The notes beneath the pieces are model-generated. The model worked only from the letters and a program-made list of their open reading frames with translations, did not search any database and was not told the DNA's origin. A stretch of 64,000 nt of DNA, from NCBI GenBank assembly GCA_018417955.1, contig JACTVC010000017.1, forward strand, positions 62,001 through 126,000. The letters are read 5' to 3'. Source of the DNA: Laccaria trichodermophora. Its lineage: Eukaryota; Basidiomycota; Agaricomycetes; Agaricales; Hydnangiaceae. Both the position numbers and the translations under genes were made by a program. Positions 10,005 to 37,483 of the stretch are shown here, one piece after another; the stretch's first letter is position 1; the number at the start of each line of letters is the position of its first letter.

Positions 10005-10927
10005 ATGCAAAACGGCCAGGTTGGTGGAGGGTCGGGGTACGGCCTACGGAAGAAAATCCAGACAACCCCGAAAGCCCACCAAACTTTGATTGATTCTGCA
10101 TCCAGACGCGCCATCCGCTCTCCATCGCCTGAGGATCTTCCAGAATTACCCCTCTCTCAGCCTGATTTCGGCATCCTGCAGTGATCTCCTGATGAAGTCG
10201 AAGACCTTTTTCTTCAAACAAGCACTCCGCGTACCCCACGCACAAACACTTTAAATGCCAGTCAGTACGCAGATGCATACACGGCTGGGTACGGCCTTGA
10301 GGAATATCTTGGGCCAGGCGCAAGTGATACAGACATGCGATCATTCTGTGTTGACGCGAACATTTCGCTCAGCCCTGATCCTGATCCAGCGCCATCTCAA
10401 CTTCTTCTTCCACATACCGCTCCACATCTTATCTCACCAATCCATTCGTTCACTGCAGAGGAGCAAGCGCAGTCTGATAGAGCTATCCAGGCCTTTTTTG
10501 CGTCAAATGGATTTTCCGAGCCCGGAGTGGCGGTCGAGCCACAAGCGTCCAGCTCCGAGTCTGCGGCAGTTGATTACGATGCCCCTGCCGATGACGAAAA
10601 CCTCTCGGACCTTGGCTTGGATTCCAATGCTTTGCAGGCGCCAGAAGAGGAAGAAACACACTCCTTACCCTCTGGCTCATCCAAGCGTGGCCAAAACGCA
10701 GGACGGATTTCTGCAGAGATCTGGGAACATTTGCGTAAAGGTTTTCTCCAGATCGACGCAGTCTTTGACCAAATAGCCCTCGAAAGTGGTCGCACGCGCG
10801 ACAACATCATATCCCTCTGGCAAAACACGCATTCGTTCAAACGAGCACTCATGTCCGCCTGGAACATGTATCAGAAGTATTTTAAGGACAATCGGCATCA
10901 GGAGCACATGCGAACCGGTGATCCGAC
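10005..10927 (+). pseudogene. Split host gene, piece 1 of 3 (N-terminal exon)
   Basis: First exon of a gene now in three pieces. It starts at ATG 10005 (MQNGQVGGGSGYGLRK). The frame contains an in-frame TGA at 10182-10184 and then stays open to 10927, where the foldback element begins. The end of this piece (HMRTGDPT) continues in frame on the minus strand from 16490, giving DPTANC followed by a good donor GTAAGTGA. The encoded part is acidic and ends in a helical region (IWEHLRKGFLQIDAVFDQIA.., WNMYQKYFKDN). I recall similar sequences as a common Agaricomycete family of unknown function; no catalytic motif is visible. The TGA sits where CGA (Arg) would fit, so a C-to-T change is likely. Confidence 0.75.
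10919..10927. repeat. 9-bp target duplication TGATCCGAC (outer copy)
   Basis: TGATCCGAC lies just left of element A. Its partner is not at the right side of A but at the left side of element B (16482-16490, read as GTCGGATCA on the plus strand). This is the swapped arrangement expected after inversion between A and B. Confidence 0.85.
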
Positions 10928-12109
10928 GAGTGGTAGCTACCACTTTTATGATAAAATACAGTCAAGTGCCTGCACAACTTTTTGGTAAATGGCACTGTGG
11001 TCTTATGAAATGAGAAACATGGGGGAAATCTAATGAAACATGTTTCATTTTTGGCCCAGACCATTTCATATATATCTCATTGTTTCCCTAGCAATATTTC
11101 TTTGCCATTTCTTTCCCATTTCATTGGCTGACTGGCTATATTTCTTTTCCATTTCATTGGTTGCCTGGCCATATTTTTTTTCTATTTCATTGTTTCCCTA
11201 GCAATATTTCTTCGCAATTTCATTCCTATTTCATTGGCTGCCTAGCCATATTTCTTCCCCATTTCATTCATATTTCTTTTCCATTTCATTGTTTCCCTAG
11301 CAATATTTCTTCGCCATTTCATTCCTATTTCATTGGCTGCCTAGCCATATTTCTTTCCCATTTCTTTTCCATTTCATTGTTTCCCCAGCAATATTTCTTT
11401 GCCATTTCTTTCCCATTTCATTGACTCCCTAGCAATATTTCTTTGCCATTTCTTTCCCATTTCATTGGCTGCCTAGCCATATTTCTTTCCCATTTCTTTT
11501 CCATTTCATTGTTTCCCTAGCAATATTTCTTCACCATTTCTTTCCCATTTCATTGGCTGCCTGGCTATATTTCTTTGCCATCTTGTCAGGGTCCATCCAA
11601 TGGGTCATCAGGAGGGTGGTCACATGACCAATTTCCTAAAATAGTCAAAATACAAAATTAATAGCCCTGAATTGTAGCTTTCAGAATCTGTTTGAATTAT
11701 GTTCTAAAGTGCTCTCATTGTGGAGATATGAGGCAAATGAATTTTTACAGCACCGGCTTTTTTCAACCTTTTTGTCTTTTTCTCCAGGAAAACAACACCA
11801 AACAATATAATTTTAACATATTTAGAAAGCTAAGAAAAGGGGCTACAATTATCATATTATAGAAAAATTGACTCAAAAAGGAAGGTGCATAGCCTAAAAG
11901 GGACATGCACACTAGTAGACTACAAAAGTCAGACCTAGAATAGAAATTTTACCAATAGGTTTACCAATAGATTACAAAAGTCAGACATAGAATACAAAAA
12001 TGAGTAATGCACTACAAAAGACTACAAAGAGCTGGACATAGACTACAAAGTTTACTAATGGGCTATGACAGACTTCAAGAGTTGGACATACACCACAAAA
12101 TCCGCTTTT

Positions 12110-12530
12110 CTCATTAAAAAAGTTTTAGTGTCTGCTTTTTTCATTACAGCAGTTTGTAGTGTCCGCTTTTTTTATTACAACAGTTTGTAGTGTCCGCTTT
12201 TTTATTAGAACAGTTTGTAGTGTCCACTTTTTTTATTACAACAGTTTGTAATGTCCGCTTTTTTCATTACAACAGTTTGTAGTGTCCGCTTTTTTTATTA
12301 CAACAGTTTGTAGTGTCTGCTTTTTTTATTACAACAGTTTGTAGTGTCCAATTTTTTTATTGCAACAGTTTGTAGCATCCGCTTTTTTCATTACAACAGC
12401 TTGTAGTGTCTGCTTTTTTTATTCCAACAGTTTCTAGTGTTCGCTCTTTTTATTACAACAGTTTCTAGTCTCTGCTTTTTTAGACTACAACAGTTTACAA
12501 TATCCACTTTTTAAGACTACTAAGTTTGTA
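12110..12530 (+). repeat. Array of ~30-bp units in left arm of A
   Basis: About twelve degenerate copies of ACAACAGTTTGTAGTGTCC followed by a T-rich spacer and ATT. Units vary by single substitutions and by T-tract length. The mirrored array lies at about 13085-13495. The same arrays occur in copy B (about 18627-19047 and 17662-18072). They could be subterminal transposase-binding repeats. Confidence 0.75.
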
Positions 12531-13084
12531 GTCTGCTTTTCCAATTTAGTTTGTGGGTATGGGTTTATGACATGTGAGATGAGTTGACTTTTGCCAATCA
12601 TGCCCAACTGTTGGCTTTCATACCAGTGGAGCCTGCACTGTGTTTTCAAGAACAACAGCTCTACTCATGGTCAACCTGGAAAAGATTCACCAGATTCCAG
12701 CTTGTATTCACCTGAGTAGACTAAGAACATAATAGGAATAGACAACCTTTCATTGTTCACTCCTAGTACTCTTGAATGGCTTTCAGTGAAGATTGGCTAG
12801 GATGAATGGTTGGACAGTGAAACCTTATCATAATTTGACTTGACAGAGAAGACCAATGAGAGACACTCATTATAGGACAGTAGCTACTGATATCAATAGA
12901 TGTTTGACTGAGTCCAGAGAGATGGGATAGTGGCTGGTCAGCTGAAAAGAGAGACAGGCACCACTGATGTGAAAGACAACAAGTTGGGCATGACTGGCAG
13001 AGTCAATTCATCTCACATGTCATAAACCCATACCTACTACAAACTAAATGTCAGAAAAGCAGACTACAAACTTAGTAGTCTTAA

Positions 13085-13495
13085 AGAGTGGATATTGTAA
13101 ACTGCTGTAGTCCAAAAAAGTGGATTCTACCCACTGTTGTAGTCCAAAAAAGGGAAGACTACAAACTGTCATAATCTAAAAAAACGGACACTAGAAACTG
13201 ATGTAGTCAAAAAAAGCAGACACTACAAACTGTTGCAATAAAAAAAGCAGACACTACAAACTGTTGTAATGAAAAAAGTGGACACTCAAACTGTTGCAAT
13301 AAAAATTGGACACTGCAAACTGTTGTAATAAAAAAAGCGAACACTACAAACTGTTGTAATGAAAAAAGCGGACATTACAAACTGTTGTAATAAAAAAAGT
13401 GGACACTACAAACTGTTCTAATAAAAAAGCGGACACTACAAACTGCTGTAATGAAAAAAGCAGACACTAAAACTTTTTTAATGAGAAAAGCGGAT
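13085..13495 (-). repeat. Array of ~30-bp units in right arm of A (inverted)
   Basis: Reverse-oriented counterpart of the left-arm array (unit read as GGACACTACAAACTGTTGT plus A-rich spacer). The number and order of variant units differ slightly from the left arm, so the two arms are not perfectly identical here. Confidence 0.7.
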
Positions 13496-14666
13496 TTTGT
13501 GGTGTATGTCCAACTCTTGAAGTCTGTCATAGCCCATTAGTAAACTTTGTAGTCTATGTCCAGCTCTTTGTAGTCTTTTGTAGTGCATTACTCATTTTTG
13601 TATTCTATGTCTGACTTTTGTAATCTATTGGTAAACCTATTGGTAAAATTTCTATTCTAGGTCTGACTTTTGTAGTCTACTAGTGTGCATGTCCCTTTTA
13701 GGCTATGCACCTTCCTTTTTGAGTCAATTTTTCTATAATATGATAATTGTAGCCCCTTTTCTTAGCTTTCTAAATATGTTAAAATTATATTGTTTGGTGT
13801 TGTTTTCCTGGAGAAAAAGACAAAAAGGTTGAAAAAAGCCGGTGCTGTAAAAATTCATTTGCCTCATATCTCCACAATGAGAGCACTTTAGAACATAATT
13901 CAAACAGATTCTGAAAGCTACAATTCAGGGCTATTAATTTTGTATTTTGACTATTTTAGGAAATTGGTCATGTGACCACCCTCCTGATGACCCATTGGAT
14001 GGACCCTGACAAGATGGCAAAGAAATATAGCCAGGCAGCCAATGAAATGGGAAAGAAATGGTGAAGAAATATTGCTAGGGAAACAATGAAATGGAAAAGA
14101 AATGGGAAAGAAATATGGCTAGGCAGCCAATGAAATGGGAAAGAAATGGCAAAGAAATATTGCTAGGGAGTCAATGAAATGGGAAAGAAATGGCAAAGAA
14201 ATATTGCTGGGGAAACAATGAAATGGAAAAGAAATGGGAAAGAAATATGGCTAGGCAGCCAATGAAATAGGAATGAAATGGCGAAGAAATATTGCTAGGG
14301 AAACAATGAAATGGAAAAGAAATATGAATGAAATGGGGAAGAAATATGGCTAGGCAGCCAATGAAATAGGAATGAAATTGCGAAGAAATATTGCTAGGGA
14401 AACAATGAAATAGAAAAAAAATATGGCCAGGCAACCAATGAAATGGAAAAGAAATATAGCCAGTCAGCCAATGAAATGGGAAAGAAATGGCAAAGAAATA
14501 TTGCTAGGGAAACAATGAGATATATATGAAATGGTCTGGGCCAAAAATGAAACATGTTTCATTAGATTTCCCCCATGTTTCTCATTTCATAAGACCACAG
14601 TGCCATTTACCAAAAAGTTGTGCAGGCACTTGACTGTATTTTATCATAAAAAGTGGTAGATACTAG

Positions 14667-14675
14667 TGTGACTGG
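14667..14675. repeat. 9-bp target duplication (inner copy, TGTGACTGG = CCAGTCACA inverted)
   Basis: Lies right of element A. Its direct partner CCAGTCACA is at 20230-20238, right of element B. Re-inverting the segment between the elements would place the two copies as direct repeats around B. Confidence 0.85.
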
Positions 14676-16481
14676 CGCCGCTATTTCACTGACGGCTTGG
14701 GTAGTAGCGGCCGCTGTCTCCATGGCCGATTTCTTGATGGGGCGTGGTCGGGGTTTCTGTGAAGGCGCGTTGCCAGGAGCGGATGCTGATTGGGCACGCT
14801 GGTTGACAGTGTCAGGTTCAACACTGACCGCCTTGTTTGTCTTGCCTGTGGGCGCAATCTTTGCCATTTCAGGTGCCTTGGTAGGTTTTTCAGCGCCATC
14901 GTCGTCACTGCTGTTTTCCACGTCTTTTGTGACCGCCTTGCCTTTCATAGCCTTAGTGGCCTTGGCCTTCGTCGGCTTTGTTGCTTTAGGCTTCGTAGCT
15001 TTTGCCGCAGTCGGAGCCTTGGATGTTGTACGTTCCTTTCCACCATCATCGTTGTCACTACTGAATTCTGCATCTGGTGCTGCTTCCTTTGCCGCTCGTT
15101 TCATTTGTGCTTTAGCGGTTGCTTTCTGCACCTTGAGTGGTTCGTCGTCGCTGTCAGAGACTGGATCGGGGATGGTACTCCCTTGCGGCGAGGTGGGAGG
15201 AGGCGGCGAGGTGGGAGGCGGTGGTGGCTTGGTTGCTTTGGGACCTTTGGTGTCGCATTGACCTCCAACGAAGAAGCGTTTGGCGCCAACCTTCGAGTCA
15301 TAGGGGGCCGGTTCACAGATAATTATGGGAATTTTGCCCGATTGCATTTCTAGTAGTAGATTAGATATCATGAGTAGATAAGAGGCCAAAGGGACTTACG
15401 TTCTTTACCCGCAGATTTCGCAGCAATCTTGCATCCAACAACTTCGAATGCCTCTGCGAGAACTCGAGTTTGGAATGTTCCTATGTCCTTGATCCCCTGG
15501 CACGAAACGCGGCCAGTTGTCTTCAGCTTTTGAGTGGGGAAGAGAACGCCGGTCGGCCAGCCCTCGATCTGGACACCATGCCTGACGAGCCACTTCGGGA
15601 GACCGCTCCAGGTAAGGTTGCCTCCAGCTGGAGGCTCGACTTTGATATTAGCTGTAGCCAATTAGTTACAGGAAGGAAAGCCAGATAAGTGAGACACTTA
15701 CTGAGGATCCTATCGATACCGTTTTTGATTATAGCTTTGGCCGCCTTGAAGGTGGCTGACGATGCGGTACTGGCAGATTGGTCATCTTCATCTTCGTCAA
15801 CGAACTCGTAGTCTGAGCTTGGGTCATCGGGCAGTGGAGTCAAGGGGCCGTCGTCATCTTTGTACTCCGTTTTTGATTTTTGGTTCCGTCCAAACTTTTT
15901 CGGTGAGATGGAGATATCTGGACACTCCTTCAAGGTGGCGATGATGGATTCTGAAAGCTGTTCGGCAATAACGTTGCTACTCACAGTAGTTCAGCACACG
16001 GAAAAGTCATGGAAGGCGGCGATGCTTACCAAACATGGTTGCGGAAGAGACCCGAAAATGAGTCATGGTCGATACACAAGCGGTCCTTCAAAAACTGCAA
16101 AGAATGATTAGTGACAGACAGTGTTAAAGGGGGTGAAAAGTACTGACTGTCTCGGCACCAGGACTCGCATATACCTTGCACAGCCCAGCATCTTCATGCA
16201 CGCAATTGCCGACTGTCACTATCAGCGTCTCGAAGCCGGATAAATTCGAAGCGTTGAGGGCGAGTGAGCAGAGTCCGCTCGTGTGGGTGTTGAATCGGCA
16301 GTTGCGCAATTGGATGGTTGTAAGGGTCTTCTTTGAGTTTATGAGCTCAGTATGGGTCTTGAGTATTTCGAGCCAGTTAGGTTGATTCTCCTTGAAAGCT
16401 GCATAACATTTGGCGCCTGATAGATTTGAAGTTCAAGACGACCACGAACACCCAAGAAAGTTTAGTCACTTACAGTTGGCA

Positions 16482-16490
16482 GTCGGATCA
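16482..16490. repeat. 9-bp target duplication (inner copy, GTCGGATCA = TGATCCGAC inverted)
   Basis: Lies left of element B. It matches the duplication left of element A after reversal, so A would be flanked by direct TGATCCGAC copies in the ancestral order. Confidence 0.85.
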
Positions 16491-19400
16491 CTAGTATCTA
16501 CCACTTTTTATGATAAAATACAGTCAAGTGCCTGCACAACTTTTTGGTAAATGGCACTGTGGTCTTATGAAATGAGAAACATGGGGGAAATCTAATGAAA
16601 CATGTTTCATTTTTGGCCCAGACCATTTCATATATATCTCATTGTTTCCCTAGCAATATTTCTTTGCCATTTCTTTCCCATTTCATTGGCTGACTGGCTA
16701 TATTTCTTTTCCATTTCATTGGTTGCCTGGCCATATTTTTTTTCTATTTCATTGTTTCCCTAGCAATATTTCTTCGCAATTTCATTCCTATTTCATTGGC
16801 TGCCTAGCCATATTTCTTCCCCATTTCATTCATATTTCTTTTCCATTTCATTGTTTCCCTAGCAATATTTCTTCGCCATTTCATTCCTATTTCATTGGCT
16901 GCCTAGCCATATTTCTTTCCCATTTCTTTTCCATTTCATTGTTTCCCCAGCAATATTTCTTTGCCATTTCTTTCCCATTTCATTGACTCCCTAGCAATAT
17001 TTCTTTGCCATTTCTTTCCCATTTCATTGGCTGCCTAGCCATATTTCTTTCCCATTTCTTTTCCATTTCATTGTTTCCCTAGCAATATTTCTTCACCATT
17101 TCTTTCCCATTTCATTGGCTGCCTGGCTATATTTCTTTGCCATCTTGTCAGGGTCCATCCAATGGGTCATCAGGAGGGTGGTCACATGACCAATTTCCTA
17201 AAATAGTCAAAATACAAAATTAATAGCCCTGAATTGTAGCTTTCAGAATCTGTTTGAATTATGTTCTAAAGTGCTCTCATTGTGGAGATATGAGGCAAAT
17301 GAATTTTTACAGCACCGGCTTTTTTCAACCTTTTTGTCTTTTTCTCCAGGAAAACAACACCAAACAATATAATTTTAACATATTTAGAAAGCTAAGAAAA
17401 GGGGCTACAATTATCATATTATAGAAAAATTGACTCAAAAAGGAAGGTGCATAGCCTAAAAGGGACATGCACACTAGTAGACTACAAAAGTCAGACCTAG
17501 AATAGAAATTTTACCAATAGGTTTACCAATAGATTACAAAAGTCAGACATAGAATACAAAAATGAGTAATGCACTACAAAAGACTACAAAGAGCTGGACA
17601 TAGACTACAAAGTTTACTAATGGGCTATGACAGACTTCAAGAGTTGGACATACACCACAAAATCCGCTTTTCTCATTAAAAAAGTTTTAGTGTCTGCTTT
17701 TTTCATTACAGCAGTTTGTAGTGTCCGCTTTTTTATTAGAACAGTTTGTAGTGTCCACTTTTTTTATTACAACAGTTTGTAATGTCCGCTTTTTTCATTA
17801 CAACAGTTTGTAGTGTTCGCTTTTTTTATTACAACAGTTTGCAGTGTCCAATTTTTATTGCAACAGTTTGAGTGTCCACTTTTTTCATTACAACAGTTTG
17901 TAGTGTCTGCTTTTTTTATTGCAACAGTTTGTAGTGTCTGCTTTTTTTGACTACATCAGTTTCTAGTGTCCGTTTTTTTAGATTATGACAGTTTGTAGTC
18001 TTCCCTTTTTTGGACTACAACAGTGGGTAGAATCCACTTTTTTGGACTACAGCAGTTTACAATATCCACTCTTTAAGACTACTAAGTTTGTAGTCTGCTT
18101 TTCTGACATTTAGTTTGTAGTAGGTATGGGTTTATGACATGTGAGATGAATTGACTCTGCCAGTCATGCCCAACTTGTTGTCTTTCACATCAGTGGTGCC
18201 TGTCTCTCTTTTCAGCTGACCAGCCACTATCCCATCTCTCTGGACTCAGTCAAACATCTATTGATATCAGTAGCTACTGTCCTATAATGAGTGTCTCTCA
18301 TTGGTCTTCTCTGTCAAGTCAAATTATGATAAGGTTTCACTGTCCAACCATTCATCCTAGCCAATCTTCACTGAAAGCCATTCAAGAGTACTAGGAGTGA
18401 ACAATGAAAGGTTGTCTATTCCTATTATGTTCTTAGTCTACTCAGGTGAATACAAGCTGGAATCTGGTGAATCTTTTCCAGGTTGACCATGAGTAGAGCT
18501 GTTGTTCTTGAAAACACAGTGCAGGCTCCACTGGTATGAAAGCCAACAGTTGGGCATGATTGGCAAAAGTCAACTCATCTCACATGTCATAAACCCATAC
18601 CCACAAACTAAATTGGAAAAGCAGACTACAAACTTAGTAGTCTTAAAAAGTGGATATTGTAAACTGTTGTAGTCTAAAAAAGCAGAGACTAGAAACTGTT
18701 GTAATAAAAAGAGCGAACACTAGAAACTGTTGGAATAAAAAAAGCAGACACTACAAGCTGTTGTAATGAAAAAAGCGGATGCTACAAACTGTTGCAATAA
18801 AAAAATTGGACACTACAAACTGTTGTAATAAAAAAAGCAGACACTACAAACTGTTGTAATAAAAAAAGCGGACACTACAAACTGTTGTAATGAAAAAAGC
18901 GGACATTACAAACTGTTGTAATAAAAAAAGTGGACACTACAAACTGTTCTAATAAAAAAGCGGACACTACAAACTGTTGTAATAAAAAAAGCGGACACTA
19001 CAAACTGCTGTAATGAAAAAAGCAGACACTAAAACTTTTTTAATGAGAAAAGCGGATTTTGTGGTGTATGTCCAACTCTTGAAGTCTGTCATAGCCCATT
19101 AGTAAACTTTGTAGTCTATGTCCAGCTCTTTGTAGTCTTTTGTAGTGCATTACTCATTTTTGTATTCTATGTCTGACTTTTGTAATCTATTGGTAAACCT
19201 ATTGGTAAAATTTCTATTCTAGGTCTGACTTTTGTAGTCTACTAGTGTGCATGTCCCTTTTAGGCTATGCACCTTCCTTTTTGAGTCAATTTTTCTATAA
19301 TATGATAATTGTAGCCCCTTTTCTTAGCTTTCTAAATATGTTAAAATTATATTGTTTGGTGTTGTTTTCCTGGAGAAAAAGACAAAAAGGTTGAAAAAAG

Positions 19401-20229
19401 CCGGTGCTGTAAAAATTCATTTGCCTCATATCTCCACAATGAGAGCACTTTAGAACATAATTCAAACAGATTCTGAAAGCTACAATTCAGGGCTATTAAT
19501 TTTGTATTTTGACTATTTTAGGAAATTGGTCATGTGACCACCCTCCTGATGACCCATTGGATGGACCCTGACAAGATGGCAAAGAAATATAGCCAGGCAG
19601 CCAATGAAATGGGAAAGAAATGGTGAAGAAATATTGCTAGGGAAACAATGAAATGGAAAAGAAATGGGAAAGAAATATGGCTAGGCAGCCAATGAAATGG
19701 GAAAGAAATGGCAAAGAAATATTGCTAGGGAGTCAATGAAATGGGAAAGAAATGGCAAAGAAATATTGCTGGGGAAACAATGAAATGGAAAAGAAATGGG
19801 AAAGAAATATGGCTAGGCAGCCAATGAAATAGGAATGAAATGGCGAAGAAATATTGCTAGGGAAACAATGAAATGGAAAAGAAATATGAATGAAATGGGG
19901 AAGAAATATGGCTAGGCAGCCAATGAAATAGGAATGAAATTGCGAAGAAATATTGCTAGGGAAACAATGAAATAGAAAAAAAATATGGCCAGGCAACCAA
20001 TGAAATGGAAAAGAAATATAGCCAGTCAGCCAATGAAATGGGAAAGAAATGGCAAAGAAATATTGCTAGGGAAACAATGAGATATATATGAAATGGTCTG
20101 GGCCAAAAATGAAACATGTTTCATTAGATTTCCCCCATGTTTCTCATTTCATAAGACCACAGTGCCATTTACCAAAAAGTTGTGCAGGCACTTGACTGTA
20201 TTTTATCATAAAAGTGGTAGCTACCACTC
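16491..20229 (-). mobile_element. Foldback element copy B (3,739 bp), inverted relative to A
   Basis: Starts CTAGTATCTACCAC and ends GGTAGCTACCACTC, that is, element A read backwards. The length is the same as A to the base. The arms are about 16500-18198 and 18525-20220 around the loop 18199-18524, whose sequence is the reverse complement of A's loop. The diagnostic variants in the ~30-bp array appear in the same order. Such identity means two recent insertions, gene conversion between the copies, or an assembly duplication. It has no coding capacity for a transposase. Confidence 0.9.
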
Positions 20230-20238
20230 CCAGTCACA
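20230..20238. repeat. 9-bp target duplication CCAGTCACA (outer copy)
   Basis: Immediately right of element B; partner at 14667-14675 in inverted orientation. Confidence 0.85.
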
Positions 20239-21264
20239 CGCCCTGCGAGTGTCGCTCCCCAACGTGCTCATCCCCAAGCTACTCCAGCAGTCAGTGGGAT
20301 AGATGCACCAGTCACGCGCCCCCCGAGCGCTGCACCACAACTACTGACGGGACCAGCCACACGCCCCATGATTGCCACTCCTCAACTACTGACAGGACCA
20401 GCCACACGCCCTACGGGTGCTGCTCCGCAACTACAGACACAGGATCCAGTCCCAGGCGGTCATCAAAGGGGCCATGTGATCCCCCCCCGCTCAACGCGAC
20501 CCATGGATGACCGGGAACGCAATATTGGGCCTCCACCAGTGCCCAATATGTCAACACGGCCCCGACCACCATACTCTTGACCACCAGCACCAAACGCGTC
20601 TCGACCGCCACCACCGAATGACTCTCGACCACCACCAGCGCTGAACATGCTGTCTCGTCCACCTGGTCCCAACATGGCTTCACGACCACCAATGCCAACG
20701 TCTGCTCGGCCACCTGCACCAAACCCACCTCCTCAATCACATGTTGCTCCGAAACGCTCAGTGGAGGCGGATGCAGACACAAACGTCCACAAGCGCCTGA
20801 GAAACAACTCGGGTTTTGCAACCATTCGGGGAAGTCCACCTGACGATGAAACCCAGGAGTACAACAGCAACAACCCTTACCCGGCACCACGCCGTCCTCG
20901 TCGAATGCAACCGCCACACCAGCCAGAAGAGGGTCGTAACTGGAACGGCTCTCACCACCACGAGAATCAGGGTTATGATCGGGTTCGTCGAGATGACAGC
21001 CATCAGTGGGCGCACAGTCGCGCCCCTTCGCGCGGTCACCAGTCTCAGTACCGAGATCAACAACACGATCGGGCGTATTATGAGCGAGAGGACAGTGCGC
21101 CGCCCCAAGAGTACCCCTACCAGCATGAAGACGAACAACACTATAGTCAGCAGGGGGGTTGTTACCCACCACACCAGCATCCCATCCCCTCTATACCAGA
21201 GCATAACGAGGACGCTTATGGTAATGCTGCCGATGCTTACGACGACGCTCACTATGAGTATTAA
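20230..21264 (+). pseudogene. Split host gene, piece 3 of 3 (C-terminal exon)
   Basis: Continues piece 2 in frame through the 9-bp duplication (APVT then RPASVAPQ). It is Pro/Arg-rich, with degenerate peptide repeats of the type NxxSRPPxP, then a basic region (KRSVEADADTNVHKRLRNN) and a His/Tyr/Gln-rich tail ending AYDDAHYEY at the stop 21262-21264. One repeat unit reads TCT TGA where its neighbours read TCT CGA, giving a premature stop at 20578-20580. With this stop, the one in piece 1 and the inversion, the gene cannot make a full protein in the form shown here. Confidence 0.72.
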
Positions 21265-35700: not shown

Positions 35701-37483
35701 TGTTTTCCTCACATTGTTAATCTTGCTTGTAAAGCAGTTATTGCCGCTCTGGCAAGATCCGACTATGGCTCCACTACAGGAGATCACACCGACCCAATCA
35801 GCACTCTCCGTGCACTAGTTCGGGCAGTATGTATTATTTGTCAGCTCTCCAAATTGACCTAATTACAATATCATAGGTGCGGGCTTCGTCGCTCCGCCGC
35901 CAGCACTTCTCAGAAATCTGTGAAAAATATGACCTTGATCTTCAGCTTTTACGTGATGTTGATACTCGCTGGTCCTCAACTCTATACATGATTGAACGGG
36001 CATTGCATCTAGAAAAAGTATGTGATTTAATTCACTTTTGACCACTTGATCATTTCTCTTACATTTTTGTAGCCTCTGGACGACATTTGCTCATCTGGAG
36101 AGTTTCAGGACTTGGAGAAGTTTAAACTCTCATCTGAAGAATGGGATGGACTTGCAGCTGCGCGGGAAATTCTCATGGTGAGCCGCAAAACTGCTTTTAT
36201 CTGGCTTTATTCTGACACGCTGAAAGGTGCCAGAAGCGTTTCAACAAAAGCTTTCTGCAGAAAAGACTCCTACTTTATGTAATGCATTGCCGGCCTTTGA
36301 TGCGATGGTTTCTGTGTGGAATGAGCTGCAGGAAAGTATGGATGAGCCATACTTTGATATTATTCAGGCCGGGATTGATAAGCTTGATGCATATCACAAT
36401 CGGGCTGAGCTCGTCCCTGCGTACATGATCTCCATGTGTGAGTTGAGCTTCCTTATTATACCTCAGATGATCTACTAAACTCTCGCACCAATTTTGAAAG
36501 TTTTGAATCCATCGATGAAACTTAGTCATGTTGAAAGCTCTCGGCACAGTCAAGTCAAAAATCTTATCCGGCAGACAGTGCGTCATTAATTGAATGCAGT
36601 GCTACCATTAAACTAAGAGATATCTGCTACGTCTAGCTTCTTCCTTATTACCAGAGGCGCACTGCTACATCACCCCAGTCAGGTGCACCCATCACACCAA
36701 CTGACCCACCAGAACCGGCGCCAGCATTGCGTGCTACTGATTATACCCCTCTTCGATCGCGAGCCATCCGGGGCCGCTCAATTCGAGGTTCATTGGCTCA
36801 CCGGACAGCAGACGACATTTTGGGCTTGTCAAGGCGCGATGCACACAGGAACAGTTCCCTGGATGACGAAATCAATCGTTACCTCAATGACTCATCAACA
36901 GGAACAAGCAATCTCATGTATTGGCAGGTGTGTTTTCGCTTTCCCTCCTTTTTTAGGTATCGCCGTATTGAGATACATTATATACATATAGGAAAATCAA
37001 CTTCATTATCCTACTCTTTTCCTGGCAGCCTTGGACTATCTAGCAATCCAAGGGTCTGCTGTTCCATGTGAAAGAGTGTTTTCATCTGCAAAGGAGACCA
37101 TGACCCATCGTCGAAACCGAATTGGCGAGGACTTGATGGAAATGCTGCAGATGCTAAAGTTTTCTCTAAAATCTGGTCAATCCTTAGATTTCACCCAGGG
37201 AACATCTCGAGAAGATGTCCTGGAGTTCATTAAGTCCATCCAAGATGGAGAGAATGCCGTTCCGGAGGATGTTAATGCGTATATTAAGTCTTTACTGGCA
37301 ACTGTAGAGTAGATAACCCTTGCTTTCCATATTAGGCTTGAAACTGATGGTTTACCGGTTTGAACCGGCGTTACAGTGAAATCGAACCTCATTACCCAGT
37401 TTGATTTGGATTAGCCATCAATTCATTACCTAAACCGGCAAAACTAGACTGTAACCGGACCTGACCAAACCGCGGCAACACTA
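32754..37483 (+). mobile_element. hAT-superfamily DNA transposon, apparently complete (4,730 bp)
   Basis: TIRs TAGTGTTGCCGTGGTTTGG and, inverted, TAGTGTTGCCGCGGTTTGG differ at one base. The 8-bp target duplication GTGCACGT is perfect (32746-32753 and 37484-37491), which is diagnostic for hAT. Both subterminal regions are full of ACCGG/CCGGT words. The element contains one transposase gene and about 1.2 kb of upstream sequence without a convincing ORF. Confidence 0.93.
33926..37312 (+). CDS. hAT transposase with BED-type zinc finger and hATC dimerisation domain
   Basis: Cut-and-paste transposase. The start is ATG 33926, followed by an Arg/Gly-rich tract and a Pro/Ser-rich linker. A BED-like finger is seen as VCAFCE, then LRAHLMKFHL, split by the intron 34615-34669. 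The RNase-H-like core has SVTTDMWTDPN (first Asp region), WVTLDNASNND, CFPHIVNLACK and VDTRWSSTLYMI. The C-terminal hATC dimerisation block reads LDYLAIQGSAVPCERVFSSAKE and MLQMLKF. I followed about eleven introns; the tested junctions keep the frame (for example SV/IGWVTLDN and WQ/ENQLHYPTLF), and I saw no stop or frameshift. The model between about 36440 and 36660 is the least certain. Likely autonomous. Confidence 0.88.

What the first reader, a model, noticed from the sequence alone, without database searches (positions are those of the whole stretch)
10005..21264. One gene cut in three and its middle inverted between two identical foldback elements, with swapped target duplications
The frame of 10005-10927 continues exactly on the minus strand at 16490-14667 and then on the plus strand at 20230-21264, with five good in-frame introns. 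TGATCCGAC sits left of element A and, inverted, left of element B. CCAGTCACA sits right of A (inverted) and right of B. Re-inverting 14667-16490 restores each element to a single pair of direct 9-bp repeats and restores the gene. This is a fossil record of two insertions followed by recombination between inverted copies. Such paired palindromes could flip the segment repeatedly.
Basis: seen in the sequence. Interest (0 to 1): 0.95.

Follow-up and report, generated by a model that had tools for sequence, protein, structure and literature searches.

The report
Gene middle flipped between twin transposons
In this fungal genome one gene lies in three pieces, its middle piece turned round between two letter-for-letter identical 3.7-kb palindromic elements whose 7-base insertion scars are swapped, which marks an inversion that was likely made by one faulty jump of a single element rather than by two separate insertions.

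Summary
The core of the finding holds. Elements A (10928-14668) and B (16489-20229) are exact reverse complements over 3741 bp. The 1820 bp between them is inverted: in 6 of 6 paralogous genes the left and middle pieces lie on one strand. Corrections: target duplications are 7 bp, not 9 (16 of 19 other elements), and the left and right pieces each hold an in-frame TGA.

Swapped duplications fit several routes. A and B are identical through repeat arrays that no other compared copy shares; the best other match is 95.6% over 2428 bp. By the criterion printed for Drosophila Galileo (PMC2775673), identical rather than chimeric copies point to hybrid-element insertion: one element on two sister chromatids, one end from each, reinserted 1.8 kb away. 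I prefer this to two insertions plus crossover; gene conversion and an assembly flip are not excluded. A KDZ transposase match lies inside a 22.5-kb element with the same ends, so KDZ mobilisation is likely. Repeated flipping was not testable. New member of a known kind.

The parts
10005..10927 (+). left piece of the split gene (307 codons and 2 bases, in-frame TGA at 10182)
   Evidence: frame and stop; the part after the stop aligns to 6 of 6 paralogues
10921..10927 (+). 7-bp target duplication t1 (ATCCGAC), left of element A
10928..14668 (+). element A, 3741-bp palindromic element without long frames, GAGTGG end left, CTAGTG end right
14669..14675 (-). 7-bp target duplication t2, inverted (TGACTGG), right of A
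14669..16488 (-). inverted middle piece of the gene with five introns (16417-16473, 16095-16147, 15977-16029, 15652-15701, 15350-15399)
16482..16488 (-). 7-bp target duplication t1, inverted (GTCGGAT), left of B
16489..20229 (-). element B, exact reverse complement of A
20230..20236 (+). 7-bp target duplication t2 (CCAGTCA), right of B
20230..21264 (+). right piece of the gene, proline-rich, in-frame TGA at 20578, final TAA at 21262
   Evidence: weak homology only

Best explanation
The middle piece of one fungal gene is inverted between two identical 3741-bp palindromic elements with exchanged 7-bp target duplications, and this was likely produced by a single hybrid-element insertion: after replication a transposase, likely of the KDZ type, would have paired the left end of one sister's element with the right end of the other's and inserted that pair 1.8 kb away. 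Shown: identity and opposite orientation of A and B, exchanged 7-bp duplications, inversion relative to paralogues, one match only for each flank, 7-bp duplications as the rule of the family. Inferred: that one element gave both copies, that sister chromatids took part, that the enzyme is KDZ. The model gives, from left to right, t1, element, inverted t2, inverted middle, inverted t1, element inverted, t2, which is the order seen. Which site was hit first cannot be told. In this assembly the gene is broken by two 3.7-kb insertions, an inverted middle and two in-frame stops.
For: A and B are identical over 3741 of 3741 bases, while the best single stretch shared with any of the 19 other elements is 95.6% over 2428 bp (L036); among the others the best-scoring stretches reach at most 97.8% (L045/L039, 3081 bp) (L048 and L060 are one locus fetched twice). 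In one search the windows without arrays match their best-scoring other copies at 99.6-100%, those with arrays at 91.8-98.6%, so the arrays are the fingerprint. Exchanged 7-bp duplications; 16 of 19 other elements have matched ones. The Galileo paper states that the two copies are identical under hybrid-element insertion but chimeric under ectopic recombination (PMC2775673, section 10, part 1 of 2). Two ends on C1, 22.5 kb apart and of the right kinds and directions, carry the same 7 bp GCCAGCG, so they are read as one element; a KDZ match (126 bits) lies between them, and neither hAT nor MULE models hit there. Kyakuja elements of the KDZ group make 7-bp duplications (PMC12730594, passages).
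Against: Gene conversion between inverted copies 1.8 kb apart could also make two independent copies identical; the outer 1229 bp of A's two arms are identical, which hints at homogenisation, although A's arms over 1727 bp (95.5%) are within the range of the other copies (88.6-99.3% over their longest stretch). Nearby related copies exist: L051's best match is L050, 34 kb away on C67 (97.5% over 2830 bp; L050's own best by score is L043). Predicted exchange partners of two irregular copies (L042, L044) were not found, so no second case was found. The KDZ match may sit in a nested element, since the interior was not readable. Assembly orientation is unverified.
Confidence: 0.5

Rival explanations
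1. Two insertions of near-identical copies, then a crossover between the inverted copies or their palindromic arms inverted the middle and exchanged the duplications; gene conversion may have made the copies identical.
For: Exchanged duplications are expected from it. Palindromic arms offer inverted pairs whatever the orientation of the elements (follows). Outer arms of A are identical over 1229 bp. A related pair 34 kb apart exists (L050/L051).
Against: Needs a second insertion within 1820 bp (0.014 expected for 22 unrelated copies; a lower bound) by a copy with the same arrays, plus a crossover. No chimeric pattern is visible, though identical parents would show none.
Confidence: 0.32
2. Assembly error: the inner 1820 bp is really in gene orientation and was flipped between 3.7-kb identical inverted repeats. 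Then there are two ordinary insertions with matched duplications in one gene.
For: Identical 3.7-kb inverted repeats around a short unique stretch are a known assembly trap, and polishing can make repeats look identical (both recalled).
Against: 59 Mb in 77 contigs suggests long reads (inference); two identical insertions in one gene would still need explaining.
Confidence: 0.12
3. Intramolecular replicative transposition of one element, the route by which bacterial IS elements make adjacent inversions: same end product with two identical inverted copies.
For: Gives the duplication pattern in one step (inference from the strand-transfer scheme, recalled).
Against: I know of no replicative route for KDZ or other eukaryotic cut-and-paste families (recalled, not searched exhaustively; one search gave no eukaryotic case in its listing that I followed up).
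Confidence: 0.06

Closest known systems
Galileo (P superfamily, foldback-like) inversions of Drosophila buzzatii, PMC2775673 (passages and section 10 part 1)
   Same: Two inverted long-TIR elements at the breaks of an inversion, exchanged 7-bp target duplications
   Different: There the copies are chimeric, hence ectopic recombination; here they are identical. Host, transposase class and inversion size differ, and here both breaks lie in one gene
Hybrid element insertion of P elements (Gray, Tanaka and Sved 1996, seen only as a citation in PMC8225341) and alternative transposition of maize Ac/Ds (PMC8225341, passages)
   Same: Ends of different element copies used together, giving inversions with target duplications
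   Different: Other transposase families; here inferred from sequence alone
[quoted passage not shown] 2002, seen only as cited in PMC8225341)
   Same: Cited there as rearrangement by non-standard transposition in a fungus
   Different: Paper not read; element not compared
Kyakuja group of KDZ DNA transposons in Agaricomycotina (PMC12730594, passages)
   Same: 7-bp target duplications; KDZ match inside a same-ended element; a 174-aa frame 1.1 kb past that match on the same strand has two named Laccaria proteins among its 57 matches
   Different: Kyakuja-1/2_LB have CA..TG ends and no TIRs; this family has one CAC end, one GAG end and inverted arms of about 1.7 kb

Membership tests
Transposon-mediated inversion with exchanged target duplications | two copies in opposite orientation at the breaks | tested here: met
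Transposon-mediated inversion with exchanged target duplications | duplications exchanged between the copies | tested here: met
Transposon-mediated inversion with exchanged target duplications | segment between is inverted against a reference order | tested here: met
   6 of 6 paralogues for left and middle pieces; right piece inconclusive
Hybrid-element insertion | flanking copies identical, not chimeric | tested here: met
   3741 of 3741; gene conversion or polishing could mimic it
Hybrid-element insertion | parent chromosome carries one element only | not testable with these tools
   no relatives held for this genome; flanks found once
KDZ / Kyakuja DNA transposon | 7-bp target duplication | tested here: met
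   16 of 19 other elements, and the pair of ends 22.5 kb apart; reference value
KDZ / Kyakuja DNA transposon | 5'-CA..TG-3' ends | tested here: not met
   one end reads CAC, the other GAG
KDZ / Kyakuja DNA transposon | no terminal inverted repeats | tested here: not met
   long inverted arms
KDZ / Kyakuja DNA transposon | KDZ transposase in an element with the same ends | tested here: inconclusive
   PF18758 match inside the 22.5-kb element; interior not readable, nesting not excluded; the frames read at its edges have no Pfam match
Mutator-like foldback element | 8-11-bp, usually 9-bp duplications (recalled) | tested here: not met
   7 bp; no MULE match in the 22.5-kb element
hAT7 (7-bp hAT of rust fungi) | hAT transposase in a same-ended element | tested here: not met
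   none of 89 PF05699 matches lies within C1:3695051-3717510

The most novel reading that the evidence does not exclude
KDZ transposases perform hybrid-element transposition, and palindromic KDZ passengers use it to turn one insertion into a paired-palindrome inversion cassette inside a host gene: a first case of such a rearrangement route for this large fungal transposon group, with a segment that the pair could go on flipping.
Probability: 0.33. Interest if true: 0.62.

Novelty: new member of a known kind. Interest (0 to 1): 0.45.

Why it matters
It is an unusually clean sequence record of a transposon-made inversion: both breaks, both scars, paralogues with the original order and the family rule for the scars can be read from one genome. 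If made by hybrid-element insertion it would show that KDZ elements, abundant in this genome (182 transposase matches reported, a lower bound), could invert genes in one step. The paired palindromes also form a natural test locus for inverted-repeat flipping and conversion.

Tried and rejected
Nine-base duplication (Mutator-like): rejected, the family makes 7-bp duplications. Exchange partners for L042 and L044: one predicted junction each was sought and not found; the other predicted junction of each was not sought. L048/L060, whose flanks mirror each other, looks like an element with two C-type ends inside a longer repeat array, not a second case of swapped scars. Homologues of the middle piece in the large protein set: none at E 1e-3; Pfam gave nothing over its cut-off for the pieces, so the gene's function stays unknown. 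Against the nearest paralogue Ks is saturated in the left piece and 3.1 in the middle, Ka 0.47 and 0.34, which suggests past constraint. Literature: no fungal KDZ inversion with exchanged duplications appeared in the listings (listings with the start of abstracts, top 12-20 of each, open-licence library only).

Full report
WHAT IS THERE. The window lies in contig C9 of a 59.0-Mb, 77-contig assembly. Elements A (10928-14668) and B (16489-20229) are exact reverse complements over 3741 bp with 1820 bp between. Each is a palindrome: outer arms identical over 1229 bp, 95.5% over 1727 bp, with repeat arrays of 44-bp and 31-bp spacing; the longest stop-to-stop frame wholly inside is 110 aa, in the arrays. 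The three gene pieces each have one match in the genome, themselves.

THE GENE. Taken apart, the left piece (10005-10927), the middle on the minus strand (16488-14669) and the right piece (20230-21264) have agreeing frames at both breaks, and the middle carries five in-frame introns. One search found six further loci with related genes, fetched as L027-L032. In 6 of 6 the left piece aligns to residue 246-248 of 248 and the middle piece follows from residue 4-6 on the same strand after 62-72 bp, the size of the first intron plus a few codons. So the middle piece in the window is inverted. The right piece is proline-rich: best matches downstream on the expected strand in 5 of 6, with E from 1e-4 to 5e-3 without composition correction, in L030 tied with a hit upstream; in L027 the best one is on the wrong strand. 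Its homology is therefore inconclusive, while its frame agrees. TGA codons at 10182 and 20578 interrupt the left and right pieces. Against L027, Ka is 0.47 (left) and 0.34 (middle), Ks saturated and 3.1.

THE SCARS. Ends are GAGTGGTAGC.. on one side and CACTAGTATC.. on the other. Of 19 other paired elements fetched, 16 have perfect 7-bp duplications; L042 and L044 have none, and L048 (same locus as L060) has mirrored flanks. L052/L061 showed one end only and was not counted. Two ends on C1 (3695051 and 3717510, in L058 and L059) of the right kinds and directions carry the same 7 bp GCCAGCG and are read as one 22.5-kb element. A and B each lack a matched pair, but t1 (ATCCGAC) sits left of A and inverted left of B, and t2 (CCAGTCA) right of B and inverted right of A. 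Chance for two such matches at set places is 3.7e-9.

HOW IT AROSE. Exchanged duplications follow from (a) two insertions plus crossover, (b) hybrid-element insertion from sister copies at one site, (c) intramolecular replicative transposition, or (d) a false flip in the assembly. The Galileo paper (section 10, part 1 of 2) says that (a) predicts chimeric and (b) identical copies. A and B are identical throughout; the best single stretch shared with another element is 95.6% over 2428 bp. Windows of A without arrays match their best-scoring other copies at 99.6-100%, windows with arrays at 91.8-98.6%, so the arrays carry the information. Working through (b): cut at the left end of one sister's element and the right end of the other's, and insertion at t2 in the orientation that inverts rather than deletes, gives t1, A, inverted t2, inverted middle, inverted t1, B, t2 (inference). 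That is the order seen. For (a), unrelated insertions this close are expected 0.014 times among 22 copies; the copy count is a lower bound, and by hand 57 copies would give about 0.1. A related pair 34 kb apart (L050/L051, 97.5% over 2830 bp) makes local hopping plausible, and gene conversion could erase differences; A's arms are identical in their outer 1229 bp, though over 1727 bp they are no more alike than those of other copies. I put (b) at 0.5, (a) at 0.32, (d) at 0.12, (c) at 0.06.

WHICH TRANSPOSON. One search reports 182 KDZ transposase matches in the genome (lower bound); one (C1:3699621-3700007, 126 bits) is inside the 22.5-kb same-ended element. A 174-aa frame 1.1 kb further on the same strand has 57 protein matches, two named from Laccaria, though no Pfam match of its own. 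None of 89 hAT and 7 MULE matches falls inside that element. Kyakuja elements of KDZ make 7-bp duplications but have CA..TG ends and no TIRs (passages), so the family is not filed as Kyakuja. KDZ mobilisation is likely, not shown; the interior could not be read.

WHAT IT DOES. I found nothing that suggests a working switch: both elements stay inside the coding sequence in either orientation and two pieces carry stops. It is best read as a recent scar of aberrant transposition; whether the segment still flips needs reads.

Noticed in passing
L058/L059, C1:3695051-3717510: Two family ends 22.5 kb apart with the same 7-bp duplication GCCAGCG and a KDZ transposase match between them: a candidate autonomous partner.
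   Followed up: partly
L044 (C34) and L048/L060 (C8): Elements with two CACTAG-type ends instead of one of each; L044 has unmatched flanks, L060 has mirrored flanks of repeat-array sequence.
   Followed up: partly
L042 (C1:1763097-1767219): Element with two different 7-bp flanks; one predicted exchange-partner junction was sought and not found.
   Followed up: partly
window 36977-37162 (C9:98977-99162): Match to a hAT transposase dimerisation domain with one TAG inside.
   Followed up: no
contig starts or ends, e.g. C1:11599, C6:7843, C39:1683, C20:2008, C26:4878, C9:1259816: KDZ matches, several of equal score, close to contig ends, which hints at subtelomeric KDZ copies.
   Followed up: no
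genome-wide: The end motif with up to 3 mismatches has 422 matches against 79 for the reversed control (only the first places listed), among them CTGGTGGCTACCACTTTT, GTGGTCCCTACCACTTTT and GTGGTAGCTACCACTTAT: probably a larger group of elements with kindred ends.
   Followed up: no
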